Positions 1,901 through 60,112 of a stretch of DNA of 64,000 bases are shown piece by piece. The first letter of the stretch is position 1; each line of letters opens with the position of its first letter. Below the pieces are notes generated by a model. That model was given only the letters and a program-made list of their open reading frames with translations, was not told where the DNA came from and did not search any database. The stretch comes from Microvenator marinus (GTDB taxonomy: Bacteria > Myxococcota_A > Bradymonadia > Bradymonadales > Bradymonadaceae): NCBI RefSeq assembly GCF_007993755.1, contig NZ_CP042467.1:4426001-4490000 (forward strand). The letters run 5' to 3'. Made by a program: the position numbers and the translations under genes.

Positions 1901-1961
1901 TGTTCTACTCCGTGTTTTGGGCGGCTCTTTCCGCCTTCAAAGGAGTCAAACGACCAAAGTC

Positions 1962-3944: not shown

Positions 3945-4127
3945 ATCTTAGAACAACTGACCTGATCGGAATTTCCCCCAAATTAATCAGAGCAATTATC
4001 GTTCCTAGATCCCATAGCCCGCATGTTAGGGGGAACGCGACCCGGCCAAGGTTTCCATGAGCAAGAAATTGCACCTTCAGGAATATTATCCGCATCTTTT
4101 TCGCTACAGGGGACCCTTTGGAATTTT

Positions 4128-5201
4128 ATGAAAAACTACATCCTACCCATTGCACTACTCGCCGTCTTTTCTCTTGGTGCGTGTTCTTCGACTGAAGAAG
4201 AAGCTGCACCGAAAGGCAAAGGACCTTCAGCAGCCAAGGTGACCACGGTCCCCATTGAGCGAGATTCACTCTTTGAAGAGCGTCGCTTCATGGGAGATGT
4301 CACCAATGCTGAATCCACCGTTCTAGCCGCCGGAGGCTCTGGCGAGGTGATCCGAGTGACGGTGGCCGAAGGTGATCAGGTCAAACGTGGACAAGTGCTC
4401 GCGCAGCTCGATGATTCAATCCTGCGTGCGAGACTCGCTGAGCTCCAAGCCGGGCTCTCACAATCGGATGCTCAGCTAGAGCAAGCGATTCGCGACGCCG
4501 ACCGACTCAAAAACCTAAGCGGTCAAGGGTATTTCCCTTCTGCCGAAGTCGAGCAGGTCACTACTCGAAAAACGACGCTAGAGGCCGCCAAGCAAGGCCA
4601 AGACGCTGGGATTAGGCGTCTGCGCGAAGAAATCGCACAGATGCGCATCACTGCGCCCTTTGATGGAGTGGTCTCCAAGAGGCATATCGCTCCCGGGCAA
4701 TGGCTTAGTGTGGGGCAACCGGCCATTGAGCTCGCGTCTGAGGGCGTGCAGGAGGTCCATGTTCGCGTGCCTGGAACACTTCTGGACGTGCTCAGTGAGA
4801 CCACAGAAGTCGTTGTTTCCCGCGGCGAGTACGAAGTCAAAGGAAGTATTGCGGGAGTAGCTGGGGCTGTAGATGTGCGCTCCAGAACGGCACTCCTGCG
4901 CGTGGTCCCCGAAGCGGCCCCTGAGTGGCTTCGAGAGGGCCTTGCCGTAGACGCTCTTCTGCGAATTGAGCGGGTGAACGAGGGCGTGGTCGTGCCCATT
5001 GATGCCGTTGTTTACTCGGTTTCTGGTGCACGTGTGTTTCTGGAGAAAGAGGGTAAGGCCGAACCGGTTGATGTGACCGTCGTCGCTCAAAACTCCGACG
5101 AAGTCTTGGTGTCTTCCGAGCGACTCGAAGTCGGCCAGAAGGTTGTCACTCGTGGCAATGAGCGCCTCCGACCCGGACAAGATTTGCAGGTGATGCAATG
5201 A
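4128..5201 (+). CDS. RND efflux periplasmic adaptor (membrane fusion) lipoprotein
   Basis: Taking the ATG at 4128 gives a 357-residue lipoprotein (MKNYILPIALLAVFSLGAC, lipobox SLGAC); the longer frame from 4023 would bury this signal. After it come the usual membrane-fusion elements: a barrel-sandwich half (VIRVTVAEGDQVKRGQVLAQLD), a helical hairpin with heptads (about residues 100-165), the second lipoyl half (ITAPFDGVVSKRHIAPGQWLSVGQP) and beta-barrel and membrane-proximal parts ending LRPGQDLQVMQ. In this family the adaptor links the inner-membrane RND pump to an outer-membrane channel. Its stop overlaps the start of the pump gene (ATGA, 5198-5201), so the two are translationally coupled. 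No outer-membrane factor gene is in the window. Confidence 0.9.
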   Translation: MKNYILPIALLAVFSLGACSSTEEEAAPKGKGPSAAKVTTVPIERDSLFEERRFMGDVTNAESTVLAAGGSGEVIRVTVAEGDQVKRGQVLAQLDDSILRARLAELQAGLSQSDAQLEQAIRDADRLKNLSGQGYFPSAEVEQVTTRKTTLEAAKQGQDAGIRRLREEIAQMRITAPFDGVVSKRHIAPGQWLSVGQPAIELASEGVQEVHVRVPGTLLDVLSETTEVVVSRGEYEVKGSIAGVAGAVDVRSRTALLRVVPEAAPEWLREGLAVDALLRIERVNEGVVVPIDAVVYSVSGARVFLEKEGKAEPVDVTVVAQNSDEVLVSSERLEVGQKVVTRGNERLRPGQDLQVMQ

Positions 5202-8200
5202 GCTTTAATCCCGAGTCCGGAATCCTCTCGAAAGCCATTTCACGCCCGGTGAGCGTGGTATCCACTATGATTCTGGTGCTCTTCTTTGGAGGACTCGCCG
5301 TATTTCAACTTCCAATCCAGCTCACACCAGATATCGCGCGCCCCACGATCAACGTGGCCACGGTCTGGCCCGGCGCGTCTCCCGTAGAGGTCGAGAGCGA
5401 AATCCTTGAGCAGCAAGAAGATGTGCTCAAACGGGTGACAGGACTGCTAGAGATGGAGTCTACGGCGCGTCTCGGCCGCGGCGAGATTTCGCTCGAATTC
5501 GAGGTTGGAACCGATATTGACCAGGCCCTCGTACGCGTCTCAAATCAGCTCTCACAGGTTCCGTCCTACCCGGAGAATGTGGATCAACCCATCATCTCCA
5601 GCGCGAACTCTACCGGCCCACCGCTAGCCGTGATTATTGTGCGCTCGAATCATCCGTCGGTCTCAACTCAACCTTATAGAACGTGGGTGGAAGAGGTCAT
5701 CGTGCCTGAGATTGAGCGCGTACCAGGTATTGCGAGCGTTCGACTCAGAGGCGGCGCACCCACCGAGGTGCAAGTTGACTTTGATGTAGACGCGCTCGCG
5801 GCGCGCGGAATCACGGTCAACCAACTCGCTCAGCGCGTGCGTGCCGAGCTCGCCGACGTATCTGCCGGTGATTTTAATGTTGGAAAACGCCGCGTGATTG
5901 TTCGCTCCAAGTTCAAACCTGGCGAGGCTACCGAGCTAGAGAAGATTGTGATTGCTTCTACCGCTGACGGGGTTCCCGTAAGGCTCTCGGACGTGGCCAC
6001 CGTCAAGGTCGGCCCCGGCAAAATGCAGGATATCGCCATCGCCGATGGTGATGAGGCTATTGCGATCCTCCCGCAGCGTGAGGCTGGCTACAATGTGCTT
6101 GAGGTCACTGAACAATTGAGAGATGTGGTGATCAATCTCAATGACACTCGTTTTGAGCCCGAGGGGCTTAGAATTGACGTGGTTGACGACCAGGTTTCAT
6201 ACATTCGAGGCGCGATCGGTGTGGTTCAGGAAAACCTCATCGTCGGGGCTATTCTCGCGATCATCGTGCTGCTGATTTTCCTGCGCCGTTTTACGGCGGC
6301 CACCATCATCAGTCTTGCGATTCCTGTGTCTGTCTTGGGTACTGCCATAGGCATGGCAGCACTCGGCCGAACCATCAACGTCGTGAGCCTCGCCGGTATG
6401 ACCTTCGCTATCGGTATGGTGATCGATAACTCCATCGTGGCACTTGAGAACATCGACTCGTGGAGTAAAAAAGTCTCGGATTCACGCGAGGCGGCGTGGA
6501 AAGGCATCAAAGAGGTGGCGGGGGCCCTGCTCGCCAGTACGGCCACGACCGCAGCGGTCTTCATCCCTATCATCTTGTGGCAAGGCGAAGTCGGCGAGAT
6601 TCTACGCGACCTCGCTTACGCCATTGCGCTCTCTGTGACGATCTCGTTTGGCGTCTCTATCCTCATCATTCCGAGTCTTGCGGGCGTGTTGCTTAGGTCG
6701 TCTAAGAATGACCAACTCCCATTGCAAAGGCTTGCCGGTTGGGGCGAAGTAGTGCGCCAGTCGGTTGGTCGGGTTTCGAGTTGGCTCTCTCGAAAGTCGT
6801 GGCGCGCGGGCCTTGTCACGGGAATCGCCGTGGTGATGTCGGTTGGAGTAGCGTTTACGCTGCTTCCGAAAATGGAATACCTGCCTACCGGCAACAGGAA
6901 TCTGATCTTTGGGATTATCTTGCCGCCGCCAGGCTACTCTGTGGAAGAGTCGTACGAGACTGGGTTCAAGAACCAGCAGACCATGATGAAACACACGGGT
7001 GAAGAAGATGTGGACGGCGTGCCAGCTATCCGGCGTTCTTTCTTCGTGGGAGACCCGTCGCAGTTCCTTGCGGGCGCAGCAACGCAAGACGAAAACCGTG
7101 TTGTTGAGCTGAGGGACTTCATGCAGAACCTGCACTCACAGATCCCGGGTGTCATCAACTTCGCGAGCCAGGCAGCGCTCTTTGCATCGGGTATCGGCGA
7201 AGGCCGTGCGGTAGAGATCGAACTCTCCGGGCCTGATTTGGCAGCACTCGTGGGGCTTGGACGCCGACTCATGGGAGAGGTGCAAAAGGCAGTTCCCGGT
7301 GCACGCGTGAGACCCGTTCCACTCTTGGACGAAGGGGCTCAGGAGATTCACGTCAAGCCGAGGCGTGACGAGGTGGCTGAGCTTGGTGTGACCTCGGCCG
7401 ACTTGAGCTTTCTCGCCGATGTCTACATCGACGGCCGAAAGATTGGTGAATGGGGAAGAGAGGGGGAGCGCAAAGTCGATGTGAAGTTGCGCTCGCAAGC
7501 AGAGAACAACGCTACAGACTCTCTCAGAATGCTCCAGGATGCGCCTGTCGCGACGGCCACAGGCGAGACGGTTCCTTTCGGCGTGCTGGCGAGGATGGAG
7601 ACGACGATCGGGCCCACGGTGATTCAGCGCGTGGAGCGCCGGCGTGCCGTTATTCTGCAGGTGACCCCACCGGACGATATGCCGTTCGAGACTGCAATTG
7701 AAGCAGTTCAAACCCAGATCGTTGAGCCGCTACTGGTGTCCGAAGATTTGCCGCCCGGCGTCAACGTGCAACTCTCAGGCACGGCCGGAAAACTCAAGGA
7801 TGCCCAGCAACAATTCGGTTGGGTTCTTCTCTTCGCGTTGGTGATTTCGTTCCTACTTTTAGCCGCACTTTTTGAGGACTTCCTGGCGCCGGTCGTGGTG
7901 CTTGTGACCATTCCCTTGGCCGCAGCCGGTGGCGTCTTGGGGCTGATTTTCATCGACTGGGCAGTGACTGAACAGCCGCTCGATATCATGACCGCCGTCG
8001 GCTTCTTGATCCTCATAGGCGTGGTGGTCAATAACGCGATTCTGATTGTGGACGGCGCGATTGCGCGCCTTAGAGAGGGGGCTGAACTCGACGATGCCGT
8101 GTCCGAGGCCGTCATCAACCGCGTGCGCCCAATCTTCATGAGCACGCTCACCTCCCTTGCGGGTCTGCTACCTATGACCCTCGCGACCGGTGCGGGATCG

Positions 8201-9834: not shown

Positions 9835-12306
9835 ATGCGAAGATTTCTTTTGGTCGTTTTGGTTCTTTCCTTGAGTTGTGGCGAGGATATTTCAAAGAAG
9901 ACACCGGTCCCCGAACCCATGGAAGACATGAACACCGCGGACATGAACACCGCGGACATGAATACGCAGGAGGACATGTCTGGGGATTTTGAATCAGACA
10001 CCGGCACGGACGGTGCTGAAGACATGAGCAATCCGTGCGATTTGGTAGATTGTGGCCAAAACGCAGAGTGCCTAGTGGTAGAGGACCAAGCCATTTGCGA
10101 ATGTCTGGAAGGTTTTGAATTGGATGGCCAGGATTGTGTGCCGGAGAACGAAGGCCCAACTCTTCAGAATCTTCCTGCGGAAGAGTCCGGCGCAAGGTCG
10201 GAGTCGGATTCCTTCACGATCACTGCGACCGACCCCAATCCTAATGACGTCCTCACTTTCGGACTTGTGGATTCGACCTGCCCCTTTGATGTGCAGGTCG
10301 TGGCTGCCACCGGTGTGGTGACCTGGAATTGCCCCGCGACAACATTGAGTTGTGGCGTCAATCTACAAGTCAAAGACGATAGTGGTCTGACTGACGTCGA
10401 GGCACTCACCATTCACTGTGTTCGGAGCCTGCCCGTCATCAGTTCCACACCGCCTACTATGGTCGATGAGCACGAAACGCTGAGCTACGACGTTCAGTGC
10501 CAAGACCCTGAAGGAAGTCCAGTCACCATTTCTAGAGCGGCTGACGATACCTGCGGGGGCATCATTCAGACTAACCGCTACGTCTTTACGCCAGGTGAGA
10601 CGGATGGAGGAAACGCATGCCTTTTGAAGATTCAATGCTCCAACGGCGAGACGACCGAAACACAGAGTTCCACGTTGAGTATTCAAGAAACGAATGAGCC
10701 GCCTTCTCACGTCACGCTACCCACCACCGCATCCGCCCCATGGGGCCGTGCGGGAAGTATCCAACTCGCCGGTGCTGACTCCGATATCCCGCAGCAGAGC
10801 CTTGAATTCACTCGATTGAGCTCCACGTGTTCCTACAACGTGGATGTTTCGCTCGGCGGTGCTGTATCGTTTCTCTGCCAGAACTCGACAGGCACGTGTT
10901 CTACCCAGATCCGGGTATCGGATGGCCTCAGTGCTGCGACCTCTACGTTGACTACCGCGTGCACAAACGCCGCGCCTTCAGCCTCGAACGTGAGTGTCTC
11001 ACCAGCACAACCGTCCTCACCCGGAGCCCTGCTGACCTGTTCTTACACCTTTGCGGACCCCGATTCCGACGCCGACCAATCCACTCTTCAATGGTATTTG
11101 AACGGGAGTCCCACCGGCGTGACCTCTTCGACCTTCAGTGCGTACGGAGAGGGCGACGAAGTGCAGTGTCGAGTCACGCCAAGTGATGGGATTTCGAGCG
11201 GAACCACCCGACTTTCGAACATCGTTGTGGGTCCCCTTCAGCCCTTCGTCAGATTGGGGGAAGCTCATGCGTGCGCTCGTACCGCAGCCGGAGGCGTCAA
11301 GTGCTGGGGGAACAATTTCTATGGAAAAGTCGGTGGACCAAACCTATCCGGCAGTTCGTACTATGCGCCGTATACACCCGGAAACCTCACCAGTGGTGTC
11401 ACGCTGATGGATGTGGGAAACAACTTCTCTTGCGCGGTGCACAACGGGACCCTGAAATGTTGGGGCTCAGCAGGGTACGGTTTGCTCGGTACAGCTCTTC
11501 AGGGCGCACAGCCGAACCCTGTCAGCGTGCTTAGCGGCGGAATCACCCAAATCGCTGCCGGAAGTACACACGTCTGTGTGGTTCAGAATGGGGCGGTGAA
11601 GTGCTGGGGAGGAAACGCCGAGGGTCAGTCTGGAAACACGTCCACCTATAACGCAACCGAGGGTAACCCGTACCCAACCACGGTTTCCGGCATGACTTCA
11701 GGCATCACGAAAGTCGTCGCTGGAAGTAGCCATACCTGCGCCATCAAATCAGGTGCACTCTATTGTTGGGGCAATAACTATCACGGGCAGCTCGGTCTCA
11801 GTACGAACTTCCAAACCGATAACATGAACGCTTCGCCCAGCATCGTCAGTGGTATGTCTTCGGGAGTGACCGACGTGGTAGCCGGAGCCCTCCACACTTG
11901 CGCAGAACACAACGGCGTCTGGAAGTGCTGGGGCTTTAATCAGTGGTCACAGCTAGGCCGCACGACCACGTCGAACTTCAACTACCTGACTGGGACGGTG
12001 GCGGCCGATATGTCCGGCGCGGGCTTGGTACGGGCTGGCGGTGATAACGTGTGCTTCTTGGATTCAGGTTCCTTGAACTGCTGGGGCTCAAACTCTTGGG
12101 GGCAGCTGCTATCACCCACTTCCTACGAAACTATCGATTCGGAATTGCTGCTCCCTTCAGGGGTGACGGACGTGGGGATTGGCCGCCAGGCGGTCTGTGC
12201 TGTTGAGAATGGCCAGGTTTATTGCTGGGGAAGCGACTACAACGCCATCAGTGGCGGTGGGCAGTCCGTCTCAGCATACTTTCCCAAAACACTCATCAAT
12301 CTATAG
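9835..12306 (+). CDS. Surface lipoprotein with EGF-like domain and seven RCC1-type repeats
   Basis: This 823-residue protein has a signal with lipobox LSLSC (Cys at about 15), a 'DMNTA' repeat linker, an EGF-like Cys cluster (CDLVDCGQNAECLVVEDQAICEC, about residues 66-100), then Ig/cadherin-like modules from about 105 to 465. The C-terminal 350 residues hold seven repeats, each with a CAxxxG...xCWGxN signature (for example GVKCWGNNFYGKVGG). In RCC1-family proteins seven such repeats close a seven-bladed beta-propeller, so a complete propeller is expected. By analogy with related myxobacterial proteins it is probably exposed at the cell surface for binding; no ligand can be inferred. The gene at 31395-33710 has the same lipobox-linker-propeller plan with different middle domains. 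The tail overlaps the convergent hydrolase gene by 11 bases. Confidence 0.85.
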   Translation: MRRFLLVVLVLSLSCGEDISKKTPVPEPMEDMNTADMNTADMNTQEDMSGDFESDTGTDGAEDMSNPCDLVDCGQNAECLVVEDQAICECLEGFELDGQDCVPENEGPTLQNLPAEESGARSESDSFTITATDPNPNDVLTFGLVDSTCPFDVQVVAATGVVTWNCPATTLSCGVNLQVKDDSGLTDVEALTIHCVRSLPVISSTPPTMVDEHETLSYDVQCQDPEGSPVTISRAADDTCGGIIQTNRYVFTPGETDGGNACLLKIQCSNGETTETQSSTLSIQETNEPPSHVTLPTTASAPWGRAGSIQLAGADSDIPQQSLEFTRLSSTCSYNVDVSLGGAVSFLCQNSTGTCSTQIRVSDGLSAATSTLTTACTNAAPSASNVSVSPAQPSSPGALLTCSYTFADPDSDADQSTLQWYLNGSPTGVTSSTFSAYGEGDEVQCRVTPSDGISSGTTRLSNIVVGPLQPFVRLGEAHACARTAAGGVKCWGNNFYGKVGGPNLSGSSYYAPYTPGNLTSGVTLMDVGNNFSCAVHNGTLKCWGSAGYGLLGTALQGAQPNPVSVLSGGITQIAAGSTHVCVVQNGAVKCWGGNAEGQSGNTSTYNATEGNPYPTTVSGMTSGITKVVAGSSHTCAIKSGALYCWGNNYHGQLGLSTNFQTDNMNASPSIVSGMSSGVTDVVAGALHTCAEHNGVWKCWGFNQWSQLGRTTTSNFNYLTGTVAADMSGAGLVRAGGDNVCFLDSGSLNCWGSNSWGQLLSPTSYETIDSELLLPSGVTDVGIGRQAVCAVENGQVYCWGSDYNAISGGGQSVSAYFPKTLINL
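9925..9969 (+). repeat. 15-bp in-frame tandem repeat (DMNTA linker)
   Basis: Three copies of a 15-base unit starting GACATGAACACCGCG, the first two identical and the third diverged. They encode the DMNTA repeats directly after the lipobox of the RCC1 lipoprotein. The near-identity at the DNA level points to recent slippage or recombination, so linker length may vary among strains. Confidence 0.85.
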
Positions 12307-31394: not shown

Positions 31395-33710
31395 ATGTGG
31401 ATCAAAGTCGCCGCAGTTTTTTTAATGCTAATGGCCAGCGCATGTAAATATGATGCGTACAGCGAATTAACTTGTTCATCAAGCAGTGAGTGCCCTTCGG
31501 GGGCCGAATGTCGCTCCGGATTTTGTGCGTCAACAAATGACGTGGTCCCCGTTGAAGATATGGGCGATGACACCCCAGATACAAGTGTATTCAGGATTGA
31601 AGTTGGCCCGACCTTAGCTCTCAACGTCGGTGATACCGGGCAGCTCGAAGCTCAGGCGTTTAATCGTGCATCCGAGCCACTCGCGGTTCTTTTCACCTGG
31701 TCTAGTGCCGATGAGAGCGTGGCCGCGGTAAGTCCATCGGGCGAGGTCACGGCTCTTGGGCCTGGGAACACGACCATTACTGTCAGTGCTGAGGGTGTCG
31801 AAGCTCAAGCAACGGTTGGTGTAGATAATCCCCCAGTGGCCATTGAAGTCCAACCTGAGACTGCAATCGTAGGTGTAGGCACTTCTGTTTCGCTGAGTGC
31901 AGAGGTGACGGACATCAACGGCGGCGTGCTCAGCGTTCCCGTCACCTGGAGCTCTTCCGATGAGGCGGTGGCTACAGTGTCTCCCACTGGTGTGGTGTCC
32001 GGCGTGGCGGAGGGTTCGGTGACGATCACGGCCACGTCTGGCGAGTTGAGCGGCACCGCCGAGATTGATGTCCAACTTTTGGAGCCAAATACACTCGTCT
32101 TAGAGGCATTCGATTCTTCCCTCGATCCTATCGATATCCAGGATATCTCCGTTCGAAATTCGGCGATTATTGTCGTAGAAGCGAGTCTCTTCTTCAGAGA
32201 TAATGGCGTGGAGCTCGAGTTTCCGAATGAGTCCGTTGTGTTCGCGATAGATTCAACGACTTTCGGAGTACTTGGGAACCCGGGCGGTCAAACGGCGTCG
32301 TTCACCGCGGATGCTGACTCCGAAGGTATCGCGACGATTACAGCCACATTCGGAGAGCTCGAGGAAACACTAACGATCGAAGTCTACACACCAGTCCCGG
32401 ACACCTTGACCATCACGCCCACAGACCCTTCGGCCTTTATCGGTGCCGAAGTTGTTTTCACGGCAGATGTAATTGCGCAAGACGGTCTGCCTTTAGTGAC
32501 CGATGTTAACTGGACGAGCGATAACTCCTCTTTGGCCACCATTTTGGAAGAGGATCTCGGCGCGACAGCCGTCGCTCGAACCTTGGGTCCCGGTGCCGTC
32601 ACCATACGGGCTACTGCGGGCAGCTTGACCGAAGAGACGACGCTCACCATCGCTGGCTTTGCTGCGGGGTCGATTGCTCTCGGTGAAGAACATACTTGTG
32701 CCCTTTCTTTGGCAGGCTTCGCCTATTGTTGGGGCGAGGGCGCGGATGGCCGACTTGGAGACGACCAGACAAGTGACCGCGATCTGCCGAGCCGAGTGGA
32801 TGGCAACCGTGTTTTCGGCTCAATTCATGCTGGTGACCGACATACATGCGCGTTGACCAGCGACGGAGCCGTATTCTGTTGGGGAGCTGGGGGGCGTCTT
32901 GGAACTGGAAATGGTTCTGGGGCTGAGGTGCCCACCCCCATCACGGGTACGCGAGTTTTTCAGGAAATCGCCACAGGCAAAGACCATACGTGTGGATTCA
33001 CTGATATGGATGAGCTCTACTGTTGGGGCAGTGGTGGGAGCGGACAGCTTGGCGATGGTCAGGCTGCCAATTCGAACGCTCCGGTATTGGTCCCTAAACC
33101 AGCAGGCGCACTTGGATGGCTCAACGTGGCTGCAGGTCACACCCATACTTGCGCGCTGGACACTGCAGGAAAGGCCTATTGCTGGGGAACAAATGACCAG
33201 GGGCAACTCGGAAACGGAACCAACGATCCGAGCAACTCGCCCGTGCCGGTCGATGTTTCGGCTGTTAATAACGCCGCGTTCGTGTGGATTGGCGCGGGTG
33301 AGAACTTCACCTGCGCACGAACCATGGCGGGTGAACTCTACTGTTGGGGTACAAATGCGGTTGGGCAACTTGGCCTCGGCGTGGCCCAGACAAGTTTTGA
33401 TACGCCGACTCAAGTCCCAGGGCTGCTCTTCGAAGCAGTCTCAATCGGGAGCTCCCATGCGTGTGGTCTTAGCGCCGGTGATACCTATTGTTGGGGCGAT
33501 TCTGGCAGCGGTCGGATCGGCGCGGCGATGGACCAAAACATGCCCACTCAAGTGGTAGGTGCAACCTTCACGTCAGTTGAAGCCGGAGGTGAGCACACCT
33601 GCGGGCTACTCTCCACGAATTTCATCGAGTGTTTTGGCGAAAACCAGCGCGGCCAGCTCGGAATTGATAACACCGACGACCAAAGCTCGCCGAGCCTCGT
33701 TTGGCCTTAA
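31395..33710 (+). CDS. Surface lipoprotein with Big_2 domains and seven RCC1-type repeats
   Basis: GGAGG (31385-31389) precedes the ATG. The 771-residue product has lipobox ASAC (Cys 17), a short Cys-rich stretch (LTCSSSSECPSGAECRSGFC), then bacterial Ig-like Big_2 modules. Clear copies are at about residues 68-145 and 150-230, each with the VTWSSSDExVATVSPxGxVxG motif; a more diverged pair reaches about 420. The C-terminal 350 residues carry seven RCC1 repeats (YCWGEG, FCWGAG, YCWGSG, YCWGTN twice, YCWGDS, ECFGEN), enough for one closed propeller. Likely a surface-exposed binding protein. It is divergent from the REC-XRE gene. Confidence 0.88.
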   Translation: MWIKVAAVFLMLMASACKYDAYSELTCSSSSECPSGAECRSGFCASTNDVVPVEDMGDDTPDTSVFRIEVGPTLALNVGDTGQLEAQAFNRASEPLAVLFTWSSADESVAAVSPSGEVTALGPGNTTITVSAEGVEAQATVGVDNPPVAIEVQPETAIVGVGTSVSLSAEVTDINGGVLSVPVTWSSSDEAVATVSPTGVVSGVAEGSVTITATSGELSGTAEIDVQLLEPNTLVLEAFDSSLDPIDIQDISVRNSAIIVVEASLFFRDNGVELEFPNESVVFAIDSTTFGVLGNPGGQTASFTADADSEGIATITATFGELEETLTIEVYTPVPDTLTITPTDPSAFIGAEVVFTADVIAQDGLPLVTDVNWTSDNSSLATILEEDLGATAVARTLGPGAVTIRATAGSLTEETTLTIAGFAAGSIALGEEHTCALSLAGFAYCWGEGADGRLGDDQTSDRDLPSRVDGNRVFGSIHAGDRHTCALTSDGAVFCWGAGGRLGTGNGSGAEVPTPITGTRVFQEIATGKDHTCGFTDMDELYCWGSGGSGQLGDGQAANSNAPVLVPKPAGALGWLNVAAGHTHTCALDTAGKAYCWGTNDQGQLGNGTNDPSNSPVPVDVSAVNNAAFVWIGAGENFTCARTMAGELYCWGTNAVGQLGLGVAQTSFDTPTQVPGLLFEAVSIGSSHACGLSAGDTYCWGDSGSGRIGAAMDQNMPTQVVGATFTSVEAGGEHTCGLLSTNFIECFGENQRGQLGIDNTDDQSSPSLVWP

Positions 33711-52388: not shown

Positions 52389-54917
52389 ATGCGTGTTCAG
52401 ACCTATCTAAGTTCCCTTTTGATGATTCTCATCGCGGCGTGCTCTAACCCCAAGCCAACGTCGGAGAATTCCCAAGCCGTTGAAGAAAAGGTGAGCGAGG
52501 CCCCAAAACCGCCTAAACGTATCATTCTCTTCATTGGCGATGGAATGGGGATGAATTACGTGAGTGCCGCTGCCTACGCAAACGGCGGACCGCTGGCCAT
52601 GATGTCGATGCCGCATTTTGGAAGCACGACGCATCACGAGTACGAACACGCTTCTACCGATTCGGCGGCATCCGCGACCGCGCTTGCAACCGGCCGAAAG
52701 ACTCATTTTGAGGGCGTGAGTGTGACGCCTGGGACCACGGCCGAGAACGAGACCGACGATGCGCGACACATGGAGACCTTGATGGAGGCTGCCAAAGCCG
52801 AGGGTCTGGGAACGGGCCTTGTTTCCACCACTGTCATCACGCACGCAACGCCCGCGGCCTTTGGTGCCCATCGCGCCAATAGAGACTCAGCGGATGAGAT
52901 TGCTCAGGATTTCTTCGACAACCGAATCGACGTCATGATCGGTGGGGGTATGCGTCACTTCAATGAGCGCAAAGATGGTCGCGATTTGGCCGCGGAGCTC
53001 TCGGAGTGGGGCTATCAGGTGGCAGACAACGTTCAGGATATGCGCGTCGCTCAAAACAAACCGCTCGCCGCACTTCTAACTCCCGGGCACTTCCCGCTGA
53101 AGCTAACCGGTGAACGACCGATAAGCCTCAAAGAAATGACCGAGGAAGCGATTACGCGACTTGATATGTTGAGGCCCAAGGGTTGGGTCTTGATGGTTGA
53201 GGGCTCGCAAATCGACTGGTGCGGTCATGATCTGGATGCTGCCTGCGCGGTGTCAGAAACACTGGACTTGGATGAGGCAGTTGGCAGCGCGCTGAACTAC
53301 TCGCGCGAGAGAGATGACACGCTCGTGGTTGTGACGGCTGACCATGAAACAGGTGGTCTGGCTGTGATTACATCCGAGCGCGCGGCGCCATTTGTGGAAA
53401 AGCTCGGTGGTAAGGAAAAGCTAGAAAAAGCCATGGATCTCAAAGAGGGCGGTGCTCCCCCTGCGGTTTATGACGTGTCGATTCCCAACGACAAAACATG
53501 GACCTGGGAGGAGCCGCAAATCATGAGCCTTGGCTGGGGCTATCTCTCACAGGCGAGTCGGCCGCTTTGGGATTCTGAAAAGCGATTCTATGCCGCGCAT
53601 ACAATTACGCTCGTTGGCGTTATGGCGGAGGGTCCGGGGGCTGAGGCGTTGGTTCAGATGAAGGATAATGCCGATTTGGGCAAGACCCTGAAGTCGCTTG
53701 TGGCAGGAGACGTCGGTACGCCACGTGCCAAAGAGTCAACAAAGCCGAAGAACGTCATTCTCATGGTTGCAGACGGACTTGGTCACTCCGGGCTCGCCGC
53801 AGCCACCTACGTTCATGGTGAGCTCAAGCTTCGCGAACTACCACACCAGGGATTTGTTTCTACGCATGGAACGGACAGGCTCGTAAACGATTCGGCAGCT
53901 ACCGCGACTGCGTTAGCGACCGGCAAGCGCACACGCTACAACGCCGTGGGCATGGTCCCAGAGGGCGGCGAGTTGAAGAGCGCAAAGAGCGTACTCGAAG
54001 CTGCGGAATCGCTTGGATTGCGGACAGGGCTAGTGACGACCACACAACTTTCCCATGCCACGCCGGCGGCGTTTTACGCCCATGTGAACAAGCGGTCGCA
54101 GACTGGCGATATCGCAAAACAATTCTTAGATCTAAATAATCGAGTGGAAGGGGCTGACGGTATCGACGTTGCACTGGGTGGGGGCAAGGCTGATTTTGGA
54201 CCGCATTTAGACGCCCTCAAGACACTTGGGTATTCGGTGTCCGAGACCTGGCCTGTTGAGCCCCAGTCGAAGCTCTTTGGTGTGTTCGCTGACCAGGGGC
54301 TTGATTCTGCCGAAAAGCGGCTCAAGGGCGAGTCTAAGCACCCGTCCTTGGCGGCTATGACAGACGTTGCGCTAAAGTCATTGCCCAACGAAAAAGGGTT
54401 TTTCCTCGTGGTCGAAGGTGGTCAGCTAGATTGGCGCCTGCACGAAGCAGCAAGAGATATGAGTGTGATCCAAGAGATTGTCGACTTTGACAAGGCGGTG
54501 GAAGTGGCGAAGAAATTTGTGGACGAGAACGGCGACACATTGTTGATCGTGACGTCCGACCACGACCACACCTTGTCAGTGATCGACAATCACTATCCGT
54601 TTACTGGCAACAGGTGCGGCGCAGAGGCTCGCTGTGGTGGCACCTTTGAGAGCATTGAATTGCCCGTGAATTACAAGTCGGTGCGAAACGCCGAGGGCTT
54701 TGTGGATAAGCAAGTTCGAGGCGATTGGGCAGATTCAGTGATCATGCTTCAGTACGCTTGGTTGGTGCAGGAAGGAAAACTAAAGGGGGCTTCGAAATCG
54801 GCCCCGCACGCGGCACATTTCGTGCCGCTCTTTGCCTACGGGCCATGGGCGTATCGCTTTGAAGGATATCTGGACCAACCTCAGATTGGCCAAATCCTCT
54901 TGGAATGGGCTCGGTAG
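52389..54917 (+). CDS. Lipoprotein with two tandem alkaline phosphatase domains
   Basis: The 842-residue product has lipobox IAAC (Cys 18) and two consecutive PhoA-type domains. Domain 1 (about 38-435) shows IGDGMG, STDSAASATALATG (nucleophile Ser), ITHATPAAF, VEGSQIDWCGHD, TADHETGG and a late AAHT. Domain 2 (about 455-840) repeats the order: VADGLG, VNDSAATATALATG, LSHATPAAF, VEGGQLDWRLHEA, TSDHDHT, and HAAHFVPLFAYGP at the end. Both sets of metal ligands and both serines look intact. By family knowledge it would release phosphate from monoesters outside the cytoplasm. A double-headed form is unusual; single-domain PhoA is about 450 residues. Confidence 0.92.
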   Translation: MRVQTYLSSLLMILIAACSNPKPTSENSQAVEEKVSEAPKPPKRIILFIGDGMGMNYVSAAAYANGGPLAMMSMPHFGSTTHHEYEHASTDSAASATALATGRKTHFEGVSVTPGTTAENETDDARHMETLMEAAKAEGLGTGLVSTTVITHATPAAFGAHRANRDSADEIAQDFFDNRIDVMIGGGMRHFNERKDGRDLAAELSEWGYQVADNVQDMRVAQNKPLAALLTPGHFPLKLTGERPISLKEMTEEAITRLDMLRPKGWVLMVEGSQIDWCGHDLDAACAVSETLDLDEAVGSALNYSRERDDTLVVVTADHETGGLAVITSERAAPFVEKLGGKEKLEKAMDLKEGGAPPAVYDVSIPNDKTWTWEEPQIMSLGWGYLSQASRPLWDSEKRFYAAHTITLVGVMAEGPGAEALVQMKDNADLGKTLKSLVAGDVGTPRAKESTKPKNVILMVADGLGHSGLAAATYVHGELKLRELPHQGFVSTHGTDRLVNDSAATATALATGKRTRYNAVGMVPEGGELKSAKSVLEAAESLGLRTGLVTTTQLSHATPAAFYAHVNKRSQTGDIAKQFLDLNNRVEGADGIDVALGGGKADFGPHLDALKTLGYSVSETWPVEPQSKLFGVFADQGLDSAEKRLKGESKHPSLAAMTDVALKSLPNEKGFFLVVEGGQLDWRLHEAARDMSVIQEIVDFDKAVEVAKKFVDENGDTLLIVTSDHDHTLSVIDNHYPFTGNRCGAEARCGGTFESIELPVNYKSVRNAEGFVDKQVRGDWADSVIMLQYAWLVQEGKLKGASKSAPHAAHFVPLFAYGPWAYRFEGYLDQPQIGQILLEWAR

Positions 54918-55037
54918 GCCACACCTCAAAAAAGTCTGCAGGGTGGAGTTTCCTCACTCGTCAGAAGTGTCGAGTTCCGTTTATCTTTCGGTTTCTGAAA
55001 ATGACGATCAAATTCTCCCTTCGACATGGAGTCACCG

Positions 55038-58000
55038 ATGCAGTGGTACTTAGAGCGCGACAACGAGTGGGTTTCTTTTGTTTTCAATGACGCTGAGGTT
55101 CGAATTACCTCCGATAGTGGGCGCGACGAGACTCAGTCCTTCGAAAATCAGAATGAAGCGGTAGCCGCTATGCGCTTAATAACGCGCGAGCTTTTCGACG
55201 ATGGGTACAAGAGTCGGGTTCCGCCTGACCAGAGATTCGCACAAGACCCTGAAATTCAACGTTGGTGGGAGGAAGAGTTTGAAGCTGCACTTGTGGCAGT
55301 TAACGACGCTCAGGCCATTGAGTCGAGAGGTTTGAAGGCCCAAATTGCAGCGGATCGCAATACCAGTTTTTCACCGGACCTCGAGAAGTTTCTCGACCTA
55401 AGAGACCGCTATAGTTTTGGATGGACCAATTACAACGAGTGGCGAATCTGGGACCAGGATTTGGAGTTGCCCGATTTCGGTGTTTCGAACCGCTTTGAGC
55501 AGCTCATCTTGCTCGACCAAGCTAACTACCTCGGTACTGCCATGGCCGAGGCCTTTATGGGCGGAGTGTTCATTGGAACCGCCGGGAATGGCGACTCCTA
55601 TTTTGCCCTCAGTGGAGAAGATCCCGGGCGCTCAGAAGTCGTGATGTGGGATCACGACGAAGCCAGTATTTCTGCCGTGATCGCGGACTCCGTTTCGTCG
55701 TTTGCGTACCTGAACCATGTGCTCGGGATGGTTCATGACGAAGATGGCGAGTTCTCGGAAGAAGAACTTCTTGAAGCGGCCGAAAGGCTCGAAGGAAAGG
55801 TAAATCCTTCGTGGCACTACGACTCCATCTACGAAGAGACCGACGTTGAGTTTGAGTACGAATCAAACTGTCCCGCGGAGTATTTCTACTGGCGAATGGC
55901 ATGGGTCAACTACCTCCTGAGGCAGAATTCTGTGGTCGGGATGGAAGATATCTCTAACTACTTTTTGGAGCAGATCCACTCAGGGCTACATTGGGAGGAG
56001 GCGCTTAAATATCATCACGTTCGGCAGACGCCAGAGACCCAATTCTACTGGCTTTGGCGGCTTTTTTGGTTCGATAAACCAGAGCTCAGCCAAATGCTCG
56101 AGATCGCTGATGAAGCCCCGTCTCCCTTGGTCAGAGATTGCGCGGCACTGATTCGCGAGCTGATCAACGGACGCAAAGAGCTCGGAAAGATCAAGGATAT
56201 CCACGCGTGGCGTCAGAAGTTTCTGGACCTCGATCTCGATCCAGACAGGGCTGAGGACCGCATGCGTGAGGAGATGGAACACGAGCAAAGAAAGGTCCTA
56301 GAGTCGGCTCAACGTCTGGAAAAAGCCCACGACCTCATTGCGGAAGGAGACCGTGAAAGTGTTGTGGCAGCGACTTGGGAACACTTGGACCAGCCGGAAA
56401 TTTTGGACGTATTCTTCGAGTATCTCGCGAGTGTCGATCCTGATGTGGCCTACGGCCTTAAGCTTATCGACTTTATCGAGCATGCAAGCGAGACGCGCCC
56501 GAGTGTGGTGAGCGTTGAAATCGAGGAAGTGAAGGAAGAGCTCGGGTTCAAGGGCAAAAGTGTGCTCCCGCTCCTACTGGCGAAGGGCTGGTGGTCCGTT
56601 GCGGCGAGAACCGGTGACCCTCGGGCGTTTGAGGGCATGGTTGAGAAGTTAGGGTTGCGCGAAAAGTACCACCATACGCTCAAGGATGTGGTTATCGGCC
56701 TGGCTCGCATGCCCGAGGAGGGACGTAGGCGAGCTGTGGACGTGCTCCGGCCCATGATTCTCGAGTTCAATTGGGTCGAAGGCGACTATATGTCGGAGAT
56801 CGAAAACAAGGATGTGATGCGGGCATTGTTAGAGACCGTGAGCACTCTTGGGGAGACAACTGACGATGTCTCGGAGATTCGAGTCGTGGCAGAGGAGGGT
56901 CCAGAAGCACTTCAGATCGTGGCTCTTAAGTCCGCCGCTCGTCTCCTTGCGCGACTTGGCGCAGAGGAGGACTGGGTCTACGAAAAGTGCGAAGAACTCT
57001 TGGATGGCGACCTTGCACGGCCTGCCTTGTTTGCGCTTTCAGAGTTCGGCACGAAACGTGCCGGCGAGTTGATCGCTGCTTGTGTTGGTAAGATCTCGGG
57101 AGCCTCCAACGTGATGGCCTACGAACGAGTCATGCAGCAACGATGGGCGAAGCGAGCTGGGGAATCTGTGAATGCTGAACTCGTCGACTTTGCTTCAAAG
57201 GTCATCGAGAAGTCGAAGTTCGTAGACCTCGAACTTCACCTTGCAGTGGTTGAGTTGCTAGGAGCCCTGGATGCGGATTTTGCGGAGACCAGACTGCTCC
57301 AGTATTTGAGCCATCACCACGTTGAAGTGCGCGATCTGGCGCGCTCAGAACTATCCAAACGTGATGTGAATGCGACGTATTGCACTCGTACCTTCTTAGA
57401 GTACAGCAATCCGAAAGAAAGTGAGCTGATTGCGCTCTTGCAATCACCGAACACCGTCTACAAGTTCAACTTTGTGCATTGGGCCGTTGACTATGACCTC
57501 AGCGATGCGTTCTACGCAGTGCTCGCCAGCGAACTACCTTCGATTGTACGTTACACCCACTACAATGGCGGGTATGTTGGCTATTACCATAATAATTTTT
57601 ACTATCTCTTTCGCTACTTGATGAATCTGGAGCGCCCCGAGATCGATGAGGTACTGGGTGAATTCCTTTCGCGCCCCGTGACCATGTACGCACACGATCT
57701 AGACAAGGGTCGAGTGGCGGAGCTCAAGGCAGCGCATGCAAGCAAGCTCGCCTCAAAGGGCTCGAGTTCTGAGGTGGCAACTTTTGAAAGGCTTGGAGAC
57801 CCACGATGGATCTGTGGTGGAAATGTACATGGTGTTGCAATCCCCGAGAATGGCGTAAAGATTTTTGTGGCGAGCACAAATGGGCTTGTAGTCTTCGATC
57901 CGGACGGGCGAGTGGTGGGGGCCACGGAACCTCGTTGGCTCTATGACGTGCAAGTGTCGGGAGAAAACCTCGCACTCTCGGGCCATCACGGGTTTTTTGC

Positions 58001-59438
58001 GCTCCTTCAGGTGGATGACCTAAGCGCAAGACGTGCAATCTCGCTTTCGGGAGGGGTTCGAAAGGCTAGATTCTCCAAGGATGGAAAGCTTGTGATTGCG
58101 GTGACTGATCACCGAAACTGGTATCTCATCGACGTCGCTACTGCAGACATACAGTTGGAGGGCCAAGACCCTCAGGACATCAACGGGATTGACTGGCTGG
58201 ATGACTCCACTTTTATGTACGCGACCGACACGAGCGTGGTCGTGATGAACACCACTGGAGAAGAGCTAGCTAGAAAGAGATTCGGAGCCATGGCTGAGGT
58301 TCGAGTCGGGCCTGATTCACTCATCTATGCGGGTACTCCGAAGGGGATCGAACGCCTGAATCGCGACCTCAGTGCTGCTGCGGAATTGCTCAAGCAAACC
58401 AGCGTTTCTCGAATCGAGTTTCGGGGGGCCGGGCACTTGGTGGCTGCTTCGTGGGACGGAAAGGATACCGGGGTCTGGGTCTGGGATCTAAAGAAGTCGA
58501 AGCGGCGCCGCGCAAAAGGTCACGAGGATTCAGGAGTCTTTGGGCTCGCGCTTGATTCGGCCCGACAGATTTACGCCGGTGGAAATAAGAGCACACTCGA
58601 GCGTTGGGATGGAAAGGATAAGCCCATTGCGAACCCGATTCCGGGGCATACTAAGAAAGTTGAATTCCTTGGGCGTGGGCGCGCCTCGCGCTTACTCAGT
58701 GCAGGAGGCGACCAGAAAATCGTTGAGTGGGATGTGGAGTCGGGACTGACGACTTTCGAAGCCGGGCTTGATTTTCGCGCGTGCTGTGCGCGTTGGTCAG
58801 ATGACGTTCTCTACGTTTCAGGCACCAACAATCTTGTTGCCATGAACTCAAGCGGTGAGGAGATTTGGCGAAGCGATGCCGTTCGCCGAAGCGAATACTT
58901 GGAGGTCTATCAAAACCAAATCATTGCAGCATCGAGGGCCGAGTTAGTTTGGCTCGACCGAGCTACCGGCAAGGAAACCGCTCGCAGCGGAGATTTTACA
59001 GACTCATTCATCTACAGATGGGTGCGTATGAACGAAAAGACACTCATCGTGGCTGGTTACGATGACGTGCATGTGTTTGTCGTGGATTTGGAGACCAGGG
59101 AAGTTTCCAAGCCCTTGGCATTTGGAGGAAGTGAGCGTCTGCGAGATATCGCCAAATTGGACGAAGAACGTGTGGTGCTCACCCATTGGGGCGAAAAGCT
59201 CAAAATATTCAATGTGACTACTGGCAAGGTCGAAAAGGTAGTCAAAGAAGATCTCTCAACGCTCGCCGTCTCTGCTGATGGAGATGTCCATGCATGGAAA
59301 GGGGGCAAGATGTTTATCTTGAAGCCAGACGGGGAATTGAAGCCACCTGTGGAGACACCGGCGGCTGAAAAGGCGTTGTGGCTTGACGGCCGCCTGTTTC
59401 TTGGAGGACCAACAGGTGCTGTGTACCGGATGAGCTAG
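55038..59438 (+). CDS. Giant WGR-SUKH-HEAT-propeller protein of unknown function
   Basis: GGAG within ATGGAG (55028-55031) supports the ATG at 55038, giving 1466 residues. The N-terminal 60 residues (MQWYLERDNEWVSFVFND...GRDETQSFENQNEAVAAMRLITRELFDDGYK) look like a WGR domain. Around 180-240 is a SUKH (SMI1/KNR4)-like stretch (VFIGTAGNGDSYFALSGEDP...AVIADSVSSFAYLNHVL). Helical repeats of HEAT type fill about 400-880, and a WD40/PQQ-like beta-propeller about 915-1466 (VWVWDLKKSKRRRAKGHEDSGVFGLALDS, KIVEWDVESG). WGR occurs in MolR-like and PARP proteins, SUKH in toxin-immunity proteins. No signal peptide: probably cytoplasmic. The exact role is unknown. Confidence 0.8.
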   Translation: MQWYLERDNEWVSFVFNDAEVRITSDSGRDETQSFENQNEAVAAMRLITRELFDDGYKSRVPPDQRFAQDPEIQRWWEEEFEAALVAVNDAQAIESRGLKAQIAADRNTSFSPDLEKFLDLRDRYSFGWTNYNEWRIWDQDLELPDFGVSNRFEQLILLDQANYLGTAMAEAFMGGVFIGTAGNGDSYFALSGEDPGRSEVVMWDHDEASISAVIADSVSSFAYLNHVLGMVHDEDGEFSEEELLEAAERLEGKVNPSWHYDSIYEETDVEFEYESNCPAEYFYWRMAWVNYLLRQNSVVGMEDISNYFLEQIHSGLHWEEALKYHHVRQTPETQFYWLWRLFWFDKPELSQMLEIADEAPSPLVRDCAALIRELINGRKELGKIKDIHAWRQKFLDLDLDPDRAEDRMREEMEHEQRKVLESAQRLEKAHDLIAEGDRESVVAATWEHLDQPEILDVFFEYLASVDPDVAYGLKLIDFIEHASETRPSVVSVEIEEVKEELGFKGKSVLPLLLAKGWWSVAARTGDPRAFEGMVEKLGLREKYHHTLKDVVIGLARMPEEGRRRAVDVLRPMILEFNWVEGDYMSEIENKDVMRALLETVSTLGETTDDVSEIRVVAEEGPEALQIVALKSAARLLARLGAEEDWVYEKCEELLDGDLARPALFALSEFGTKRAGELIAACVGKISGASNVMAYERVMQQRWAKRAGESVNAELVDFASKVIEKSKFVDLELHLAVVELLGALDADFAETRLLQYLSHHHVEVRDLARSELSKRDVNATYCTRTFLEYSNPKESELIALLQSPNTVYKFNFVHWAVDYDLSDAFYAVLASELPSIVRYTHYNGGYVGYYHNNFYYLFRYLMNLERPEIDEVLGEFLSRPVTMYAHDLDKGRVAELKAAHASKLASKGSSSEVATFERLGDPRWICGGNVHGVAIPENGVKIFVASTNGLVVFDPDGRVVGATEPRWLYDVQVSGENLALSGHHGFFALLQVDDLSARRAISLSGGVRKARFSKDGKLVIAVTDHRNWYLIDVATADIQLEGQDPQDINGIDWLDDSTFMYATDTSVVVMNTTGEELARKRFGAMAEVRVGPDSLIYAGTPKGIERLNRDLSAAAELLKQTSVSRIEFRGAGHLVAASWDGKDTGVWVWDLKKSKRRRAKGHEDSGVFGLALDSARQIYAGGNKSTLERWDGKDKPIANPIPGHTKKVEFLGRGRASRLLSAGGDQKIVEWDVESGLTTFEAGLDFRACCARWSDDVLYVSGTNNLVAMNSSGEEIWRSDAVRRSEYLEVYQNQIIAASRAELVWLDRATGKETARSGDFTDSFIYRWVRMNEKTLIVAGYDDVHVFVVDLETREVSKPLAFGGSERLRDIAKLDEERVVLTHWGEKLKIFNVTTGKVEKVVKEDLSTLAVSADGDVHAWKGGKMFILKPDGELKPPVETPAAEKALWLDGRLFLGGPTGAVYRMS

Positions 59439-60112
59439 CCCTTGTCCAAGAGTTGCTTTACCAGTCGCTCGAGTTCAGCAATTCTTCCACCGAGCTCGAC
59501 TCGGGTTGCGTCGTGGGCAGCGCGCTCCTCCTCAAGTGCGGCGCGCAGCATCGCGTTTTCTTCGCGCAGCGCGGAGATCTCCGCGCGCATTGAATCCATC
59601 TCAGATCGGTACTCGGCTCTTAGCTCTTCCCGGATCTCGGCTCTTAGCTCTTCCCGGATCTCGGCTCTTAGCTCTTCCCGAATCTCGGCTCTTAGCTCTT
59701 CCCGGATCTCGGCTCGCAGCTCCTCCCGGATCTCGGCTCTTAGCTCTTCCCGGATCTCGGCTCTTAGCTCTTCCCGGATCTTGGCGCGTTCTTGGGCACG
59801 GTATTGGTCCATTTGCCCGTGTAGTTGTTCGGTCCACCGCGCTAGTGTTTCTTCTAAAGATTCGGCGGATAGCCTTCCACTTCCCGATATCTGCATGATG
59901 TCCTCCAGGAGACGAAGCTTACTCGCCAGACTAAAGTGATCGCTCTCGTTGATCAACTCAATTATGTGCAGCAAGTCCTCGCCGGAGCTAGGGAAACGTG
60001 AAATGAGCTTTAGCCAACGGAACGACTTTTTGTCCGATAGACACGTTGTAGAAACTACGATGATCGGACCAAATTCCAGATGGCCGAAGCTCCATATTCC
60101 GGTATCAGCCAA
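59435..60112 (-). pseudogene. 5'-deleted relative of the coiled-coil gene at 20098-20931
   Basis: The frame (225 residues from a TTG at 60112) starts abruptly at GIWSFGHLEFGPIIVVSTTCLSD, matching the middle of the intact relative (GIWRWGSVECGPIFIVATTALED, about residue 135). It then follows it through FRWLKLISRFP and into a coiled coil made of eight-residue copies of AEIREELR. The in-frame codons upstream (AHYKILEPLAD) still resemble the family before a TAG at 60158, and the shared upstream block resumes at 60161. So a deletion has joined the promoter region to the 3' half. It may still be translated as a coiled-coil fragment; overlaps the giant gene's end by four bases. Confidence 0.65.
59612..59779. 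repeat. 24-bp tandem repeat, seven copies, in the coiled-coil gene
   Basis: Seven consecutive 24-base units starting CTCGGCTCTTAGC (plus strand), four identical in full and the others with one or a few changes (units at 59660 and 59708 differ). On the minus strand each encodes eight residues (AEIREELR). There are no spacers, so this is a coding tandem repeat, not CRISPR. Confidence 0.95.

What the first reader, a model, noticed from the sequence alone, without database searches (positions are those of the whole stretch)
55038..59438. Undescribed WGR-SUKH-HEAT-propeller giant
One 1466-residue protein seems to join a WGR domain, an SMI1/KNR4-like (SUKH) segment, HEAT-type repeats and a beta-propeller. 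WGR is known from MolR-like and PARP proteins, SUKH from toxin-immunity proteins. The combination suggests a large sensor or immunity scaffold, with domains for nucleic acid, protein and ligand contacts. It is the best candidate in this window for a new system, possibly with the convergent coiled-coil gene.
Basis: partly seen in the sequence, partly recalled or inferred. Interest (0 to 1): 0.7.

Follow-up and report, generated by a model that had tools for sequence, protein, structure and literature searches.

The report
Giant modular SUKH–propeller scaffold protein
A bacterium of a predatory lineage carries a very large protein with no recognisable enzyme part, built from several binding modules (one of a kind seen in toxin-immunity proteins) and gained, lost or swapped between related species, which suggests a capture or sensing scaffold whose client is still unknown.

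Summary
The ORF and its domains are real. The 1466-aa protein is WGR-like fold (aa 1-60), SUKH (about 75-242), an undescribed helical domain "HEL" (about 243-412), HEAT-type solenoid (about 420-905), and two tandem WD40 propellers (922-1194; about 1203-1466). No catalytic domain passed a threshold. The WGR motif is eroded, so DNA contact is doubtful. The convergent coiled-coil gene has no homologue near other members, and no toxin was recognised among the neighbours scanned. The family is modular: across Myxococcota the SUKH-HEL core recurs with different arms. It behaves as an accessory gene. One species (G013) carries it as a solitary 4.8-kb segment at a site that is empty in two congeners. 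Those two share instead a split cassette with a species of another genus (7.8 kb, 94.5-96.6% DNA identity, against 77% for rpoB and 84% for recA): recent horizontal transfer. SUKH-HEL and propeller 1 are the conserved parts, and the innermost strand of propeller 1 carries near-invariant polar residues. Best reading: a cytoplasmic non-enzymatic protein-capture scaffold of the polyimmunity kind (0.4); close rival: a Knr4/Smi1-like adaptor (0.35). Client and ligand remain unknown.

The parts
55038..59438 (+). whole gene, 1466 aa (alternative in-frame ATG at 55026)
55028..55031 (+). GGAG, probable ribosome-binding site for the 55038 start
   Evidence: sequence
55038..55217 (+). WGR-like fold, aa 1-60, motif eroded
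55260..55763 (+). SUKH (SMI1/KNR4) domain, aa about 75-242
55764..56273 (+). HEL: undescribed helical domain, aa about 243-412
   Evidence: (no Pfam match)
56295..57752 (+). coil plus HEAT-type alpha-solenoid, aa about 420-905
   Evidence: HEAT_2 in homologues
57801..58619 (+). propeller 1 (WD40, 28 strands in the model), aa 922-1194, conserved inner strands
58644..59435 (+). propeller 2 (WD40-like, 24 strands in the model), aa about 1203-1466, variable
59435..60112 (-). convergent coiled-coil ORF with a 24-bp tandem repeat; not linked to the family

Best explanation
The gene encodes a cytoplasmic, non-enzymatic, polyvalent protein-capture scaffold of the polyimmunity kind. Shown by computation: the fold anatomy, no catalytic family over threshold, the modular make-up, the accessory and horizontally exchanged behaviour of relatives, and stronger constraint on SUKH-HEL and propeller 1. 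Inferred: the cytoplasmic site (no signal peptide seen by eye); SUKH-HEL grips a protein client, most likely a class of incoming or endogenous effector or toxin; the HEAT solenoid, the eroded WGR and propeller 2 form variable arms that widen or hold the grip; propeller 1 reads a conserved ligand or peptide and can do so in trans when encoded apart. Neutralisation would be by binding, not catalysis.
For: SUKH fold next to YobK and 2icg. No enzyme family over threshold in Pfam, NCBIfam or PADLOC; two weak hits to propeller-type enzyme families (SGL E 0.093, F510_1955 E 0.011) cover 29 and 37 residues and lie far below cut-off. A relative carries SUFU, another immunity superfamily, behind HEL (E 2.1e-42); PMC3482391 reports SUKH fused to SuFu in polyimmunity proteins (passages) and lists HEAT among immunity types. 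Accessory behaviour: empty site in two congeners and transfer of a cassette between genera. Patchy: 8 of 21 genomes of the window's family match the N-terminal module. Propeller 1 is a gene of its own in three genomes, split at or near the border of the two propellers, which suggests that the parts work together in trans.
Against: No toxin was recognised among the neighbours scanned with Pfam (7 window neighbours, 10 neighbours of four other loci and G007's); the neighbours of several members were not scanned. SUKH is the best conserved domain (39% mean identity; WGR, HEAT and the propellers 20-33%), and two of three pairs show dN/dS 0.13-0.15 for it; arms-race immunity would predict diversification. 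No polyimmunity locus was seen. PMC3482391 states that beta-propellers had not been found among immunity proteins (passage). The SUKH Z-scores (6.4-7.4) are moderate. The SUFU-bearing protein is cut by the contig end inside HEL, so a SUKH in front of it is not seen.
Confidence: 0.4

Rival explanations
1. A regulatory adaptor that works like fungal Knr4/Smi1: SUKH-HEL holds a conserved cellular client, propeller 1 senses a conserved ligand, and HEAT and propeller 2 assemble lineage-specific partners.
For: Conservation is concentrated in SUKH-HEL and propeller 1, with near-invariant polar residues on the innermost strands of propeller 1, overall purifying selection and no toxin among the neighbours scanned.
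Against: Presence is patchy (8 of 21), the gene is absent from the syntenic site in two congeners and a relative was transferred between genera, which is unusual for a core regulator.
Confidence: 0.35
2. Sensor part of an anti-phage or stress system: the double propeller senses a ligand as in Apaf-1-like proteins, with the effector encoded elsewhere.
For: Tandem propellers; full-length Apaf-1 is among the Foldseek matches. Mobile cassette. In G007, G016 and G018 a separate WGR protein with a repetitive C-terminus lies directly in front of the propeller-1 gene.
Against: No NTPase, nuclease or TIR family matched; no PADLOC hit to the protein. In G004 the relative of that WGR-repeat protein is on another contig than the giant gene, and in the window's genome only its WGR part finds matches.
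Confidence: 0.12
3. Decaying or neutral relic of repeat-domain shuffling.
For: Two homologues look broken or shortened: G012 (in-frame stop upstream, short) and G005 (stop right after HEL).
Against: Long open frames in genomes of several families; dN/dS about 0.2; codon usage close to the window mean; invariant residues.
Confidence: 0.05

Closest known systems
SUKH superfamily immunity proteins (YobK, PF09346)
   Same: SUKH fold; PF09346 above cut-off in homologue L031
   Different: small proteins encoded with a toxin as a rule (recalled; passages of PMC3482391 and PMC12247911); here a 1466-aa multidomain protein without a recognised toxin neighbour, with SUKH the most conserved part
Polyimmunity proteins (PMC3482391, passages)
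   Same: several binding domains in one protein; SUFU behind the SUKH-associated HEL domain in a relative
   Different: no polyimmunity locus seen; propellers, which that paper had not found among immunity proteins; SUKH is conserved, not diversified
WGR proteins (2ra8, PARP1/2, MolR)
   Same: WGR fold at the N-terminus (Z 9.8 to 2ra8, about 7 to PARP1/2)
   Different: motif and basic helix end lost; no ART or DUF4132 domain matched; that MolR carries WGR and DUF4132 is recalled
Tandem WD40 proteins (AIP1 1nr0, 2ymu, Apaf-1)
   Same: two WD40 propellers in tandem
   Different: joined to SUKH-HEL-HEAT; no NTPase as in Apaf-1
Fungal Knr4/Smi1
   Same: a SUKH-superfamily protein as regulator or scaffold (recalled; search listing and abstracts only)
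   Different: no WGR-HEL-HEAT-propeller architecture known to me there (recalled, not tested)

Membership tests
SUKH superfamily | SUKH fold | tested here: met
   2prv Z 7.4 over 135 residues, 2icg Z 6.4; Pfam E 0.0022 below cut-off in the window protein, E 1.1e-7 above cut-off in a homologue. The Z values alone are moderate; the sequence match agrees.
SUKH superfamily | works as toxin immunity | not testable with these tools
   needs bench work
WGR family | WGR fold | tested here: met
   2ra8 Z 9.8, rmsd 1.4, 60 residues; profile E 5.5e-4
WGR family | W/Y-G-R/K motif and basic K-x-x-K before the G-Y helix end | tested here: not met
   aromatic lost in 7 of 7, basic residue in 6 of 7, K-x-x-K in 7 of 7 (by eye)
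WD40 tandem propeller proteins | WD40 propeller, twice | tested here: met
   Z 34.8 for propeller 1; whole C-terminus matches 2ymu (539 residues); 28 + 24 strands in the model, so the blade number of propeller 2 is less certain
HEAT repeat proteins | HEAT repeats | tested here: met
   HEAT_2 over cut-off in homologues L024, L026, L098; helical solenoid in the window model; no Pfam HEAT hit in the window protein itself
Polyimmunity proteins | two or more immunity domains in one polypeptide | tested here: inconclusive
   SUKH and HEAT here; HEL with SUFU in a relative; HEAT is too general to count alone
Polyimmunity proteins | toxin neighbour or polyimmunity locus | tested here: not met
   7 window neighbours and 10 neighbours of other members scanned, none a toxin or immunity gene by Pfam; not every member's neighbourhood was scanned
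MolR-type WGR-DUF4132 | DUF4132 | tested here: not met
   no match in Pfam
PARP | ART catalytic domain | tested here: not met
   no match in Pfam
STAND/Apaf-1-like sensors | NTPase core | tested here: not met
   no match in Pfam or NCBIfam

The most novel reading that the evidence does not exclude
A previously undescribed class of mobile, single-protein defence against other bacteria: SUKH-HEL megascaffolds, in which a constant client-gripping core is combined with exchangeable arms, and a WD40 propeller with a conserved channel pocket reads one common ligand (for example a shared carrier, linker or modified peptide of incoming effectors), so that one protein deals with many toxins.
Probability: 0.15. 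Interest if true: 0.8.

Novelty: new variant of a known kind. Interest (0 to 1): 0.5.

Why it matters
SUKH is a widespread immunity fold, yet large proteins built on it are hardly characterised. This family offers natural experiments: a solitary gene at a site that is empty in two congeners, a split version in which propeller 1 is its own protein, and relatives in which the arms are exchanged around one core. If the client is found, it would tell whether bacteria of a predatory lineage use one scaffold against many effectors, or whether SUKH already served as a Knr4-like regulator in bacteria.

Tried and rejected
WGR as DNA reader: rejected as the likely role because the motif is eroded. Coiled-coil partner: no homologue in 10 loci or, with the low-complexity filter off, in 16 loci. 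Toxin neighbour: none recognised among the proteins scanned. Phage or plasmid carriage: no tblastn match with aa 1-425 in 72,556 plasmid and 50,697 phage records; in IMG/VR 92 stretches matched a pattern and none was a relative. The genome-contig scan used one narrow pattern: 94 stretches, 6 relatives, whose titles name Lujinxingia, Lujinxingiaceae, Myxococcales, Myxococcota or just 'bacterium'; it cannot exclude distant relatives elsewhere. Foldseek with the N-terminal model gave no hit with E below 0.001 in PDB or BFVD; only the VIA second look found WGR and SUKH. Weak VIA matches to HPF1 (Z 4.3 and 3.7) were not followed; papers that hold both HPF1 and SUKH (listing) may only hold an author name beginning so (my guess, not checked). 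Foreign-island reading of the window gene: not supported, its codon usage deviates least of the 23 window ORFs of 350 codons or more (it is also the longest, which favours a low value). Empty-site test at the window locus: the left flanking gene has matches in 16 of 20 genomes, the right one in 13 of 20; in seven loci read (in one, L162, the contig ends behind the flanking gene) no giant gene lies there. In G004 the two flanking genes lie in the same order about 10 kb apart with other genes between, so this is a changed rather than a clean empty site. Literature, open-licence library only: WGR domain + SMI1 + HEAT repeat gave 0 papers, WGR + MoxR + HEAT + SWIM + MolR gave nothing on this architecture in the listing, WGR domain + bacteria + SMI1 + beta-propeller gave one paper on another subject.
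Full report
The observation. The frame from 55026 to 59438 is open on the + strand; the start at 55038 gives 1466 residues and has GGAG six bases upstream. Of the 23 window ORFs of 350 codons or more, this gene deviates least from the window's mean codon usage, although long genes score low for lack of noise.

The anatomy. The N-terminal model (aa 1-425, mean pLDDT 78) shows a WGR-type sheet and helix at aa 1-60 (2ra8: Z 9.8, rmsd 1.4, 60 residues) and a SUKH domain (YobK 2prv Z 7.4 for aa 75-242; 2icg Z 6.4 for aa 72-234). Foldseek alone gave no significant match. The region after SUKH, here named HEL, is helical, has no Pfam match and low confidence at 277-286 and 297-316; it was not searched alone. 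The model of aa 420-1466 (mean pLDDT 78, pTM 0.50, so the relative placement of parts is uncertain) shows a helical solenoid and two WD40 propellers; propeller 1 matches solved seven-bladed WD40 domains (best Z 34.8, rmsd 1.8, 264 residues).

No enzyme. Pfam, NCBIfam and PADLOC gave no catalytic family over threshold for this protein; weak hits to two propeller-type enzyme families (SGL, F510_1955) cover 29 and 37 residues.

Relatives. The full protein gave a match in 17 of 95 relatives, several of them generic WD40 hits. The N-terminal profile (alignment A2, nine rows) gave a match in 20 of 377 Myxococcota genomes; nine of the 20 supplied the rows of A2 and match by construction. Of the 20, 15 have E below 1e-30; the other five match weakly and over one part only. 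In the window's own family 8 of 21 genomes have it. The genome-contig scan (84,980 species, one narrow pattern) gave six relatives, among them Lujinxingia vulgaris (L036), whose contig length equals that of G018's contig. The window's genome is in the same family as G018, so it belongs to the lineage described as predatory Bradymonabacteria (abstracts in the listing); that its own strain is a predator was not tested.

Architectures. WGR-SUKH-HEL-HEAT-propeller1-propeller2 is found in G000 (window), G004, G013, G038 and G128. G032 holds two halves on two contigs whose ends cut the frames, so it probably has the same architecture. In G005 a stop follows HEL directly; G012 is short, with an in-frame stop upstream. 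G007, G016 and G018 have WGR-SUKH-HEL-HEAT-propeller2 in one protein (1223 aa) and propeller 1 as a separate gene: the separate protein aligns to aa 930-1191 of the window protein, and the C-terminus of the large one aligns to propeller 2 of the G004 and G013 proteins. The propeller-1 gene is divergent from the large gene, behind a gene for a canonical WGR domain (E 2.2e-17) followed by a repetitive, probably beta-solenoid part (my reading of the sequence). An HMM of HEL built from A2 finds 20 distinct proteins in the loci held; an HMM of SUKH finds 15 of these 20. The five without a SUKH hit are one cut by a contig end (L101), L102, L107, L059 and the window genome's own paralogue L034. Other arms: HEAT (L098, HEAT_2 E 1.1e-22; its N-terminus resembles MORN repeats by eye, but Pfam did not call MORN), a propeller-like N-terminus (L099, by eye), HEL-SUFU followed by a weak TPR match, with a separate HEAT gene directly downstream (L101, SUFU E 2.1e-42), a TPR-like C-terminus (L100, by eye), L106 (SUKH E 0.0014). 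L034 is a 963-aa protein (HEL HMM E 5e-8; MORN_2 only E 0.026).

Accessory behaviour. Between G007 and G018 (different genera in the tool's table) the cassette is 96.6% identical over 7801 columns (94.5% to G016 over 7778), while the rpoB region is 77.7% and recA 83.5%. Between the congeners G016 and G018 those controls are 96.4% and 93.2%. Synonymous divergence of the large cassette gene is lower between G007 and G018 (0.070) than between G016 and G018 (0.116). This is recent horizontal transfer; only two control genes were compared. G013, of the same genus as G016 and G018 (rpoB 95%), gave no match to the WGR-repeat gene of the cassette and has the full-length gene at another site. There its flanks match G018 and G016 at about 84-87%, and 4.8 kb holding only this gene are missing from both (G013 L217 1876-6713 against 21 bases in G018, 1908-6761 against 75 bases in G016). 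Gain or loss is not decided. In G013 the gene lies beside a tandem-repeat array (42-bp unit, 9 copies), which the empty sites also carry.

Constraint. Over six homologues (one of them a joined copy made for comparison), mean pairwise identity is WGR 20% (aa 1-60), SUKH 39% (92-236), HEL 36% (237-412), coil and HEAT 26% (413-905), propeller 1 33% (916-1194), propeller 2 23% (1195-1466). Invariant residues are 2 of 60, 17 of 145, 15 of 176, 11 of 493, 25 of 279 and 3 of 272. Over seven propeller sequences, 14 positions on the innermost strands of propeller 1 have a mean conservation of 0.806 against 0.505 elsewhere, and 0 of 20,000 random draws reach this. The neighbouring register (offset -1) also gives 0.806, so the strand start as a whole is conserved, and the positions were picked after looking. 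What stands out is that several are polar and near-invariant: Y969 7 of 7, D970 6 of 7, R1008 7 of 7, K1009 6 of 7, N1049 7 of 7, acidic at 1087 7 of 7, R1125 7 of 7, and next to the strand D1047 7 of 7. No strand of propeller 2 exceeds a mean of 0.57, but its alignment is also less certain. That these residues face the channel follows from the WD40 fold (recalled), not from coordinates. dN/dS of the large cassette gene is 0.17-0.23; for SUKH it is 0.13 and 0.15 in the two pairs with G016 and 0.62 in G007-G018, which rests on 3 synonymous and 7 non-synonymous changes.

Neighbourhood. The window gene follows a gene for a double alkaline phosphatase and is convergent with a coiled-coil ORF built on a 24-bp repeat. 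In the loci compared neither has a homologue beside another member. Scattered similarities between neighbourhoods exist (kinase, response regulator, RCC1 proteins); the closest to a shared neighbour is a lipoprotein-like gene next to the G005 gene with a relative about 2 kb outside the G007 cassette (29% over 237 columns, E 4e-22). Among 10 flanking proteins of other members none is a toxin by Pfam. G029 and G051 have two adjacent WGR genes; in G029 one looks WGR-propeller and the other WGR-HEAT by eye, in G051 the second looks the same: a possible parallel to the fusion.

Mechanism. I commit to a non-enzymatic capture scaffold, with polyimmunity as the likeliest context (0.4) and a Knr4/Smi1-like adaptor close behind (0.35). 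Mobility, patchiness, the SUKH fold and SUFU in a relative speak for the first; conservation of SUKH-HEL and of propeller 1, and the lack of recognised toxin neighbours, for the second. Both hold that SUKH-HEL binds a protein and propeller 1 a conserved ligand; neither is shown.

Known or new. Papers: PMC3482391 (passages) for polyimmunity, HEAT and SuFu, and for the statement that propellers had not been found among immunity proteins; PMC12247911 (passages) for SUKH orphan immunity genes with clustered non-synonymous SNPs; PMC10789625 (passages) for WGR binding DNA breaks in PARP1-3. Searches of the library for the combination found nothing. I class it as a new variant of a known kind: known folds in an undescribed architecture, with one undescribed domain.

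Noticed in passing
L026:6408-6437 and L026:12937-12966; L027 from 5957 and 12488; L028 from 6661 and 13186: A 30-bp terminator-like palindrome sits at both ends of the split cassette (in L026 the right copy is slightly changed at its end); DNA similarity between genera stops at the right-hand copy.
   Followed up: partly
L028:9472-9657 (first 62 codons of the large cassette gene in G016): Synonymous divergence is about 0.65 in the first 62 codons against 0.02-0.25 in the later domains (pairs with G016), suggesting a local recombination patch in the WGR part.
   Followed up: no
L101:4397-9711: HEL fused to SUFU (E 2.1e-42) with a weak TPR match, followed at once by a separate HEAT-repeat gene; the N-terminus is cut by the contig end.
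   Followed up: partly
L096:6687-11485 and L095:7621-12523: Two adjacent WGR genes; in L096 one looks propeller-like and the other HEAT-like by eye, with a SWIM-finger-like protein next to them.
   Followed up: no
window 52389-54917: An 842-aa protein with a duplicated alkaline phosphatase domain; matches in 16 of 20 relatives.
   Followed up: partly
window 9835-12306 and 31395-33710: RCC1-repeat proteins with Ig-like or EGF-like parts; similar ones lie in L027, L028 and L030.
   Followed up: no
window 59612-59785: 24-bp tandem repeat, 7.2 copies, coding EIREELRA repeats in the convergent ORF.
   Followed up: partly
L217:1548-1929: Tandem array of a 42-bp unit, 9 copies, beside the full-length gene in G013; similar repeats at the empty sites in G016 and G018.
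   Followed up: partly
L034:6572-9463 (window's own genome): 963-aa paralogue sharing the HEL domain, with a MORN-like N-terminus by eye.
   Followed up: no
L026:15120-16814 and L029:10113-12599: Related lipoprotein-like genes near two members of the family in different genera (29% over 237 columns); whether the family is simply abundant in these genomes was not tested.
   Followed up: partly
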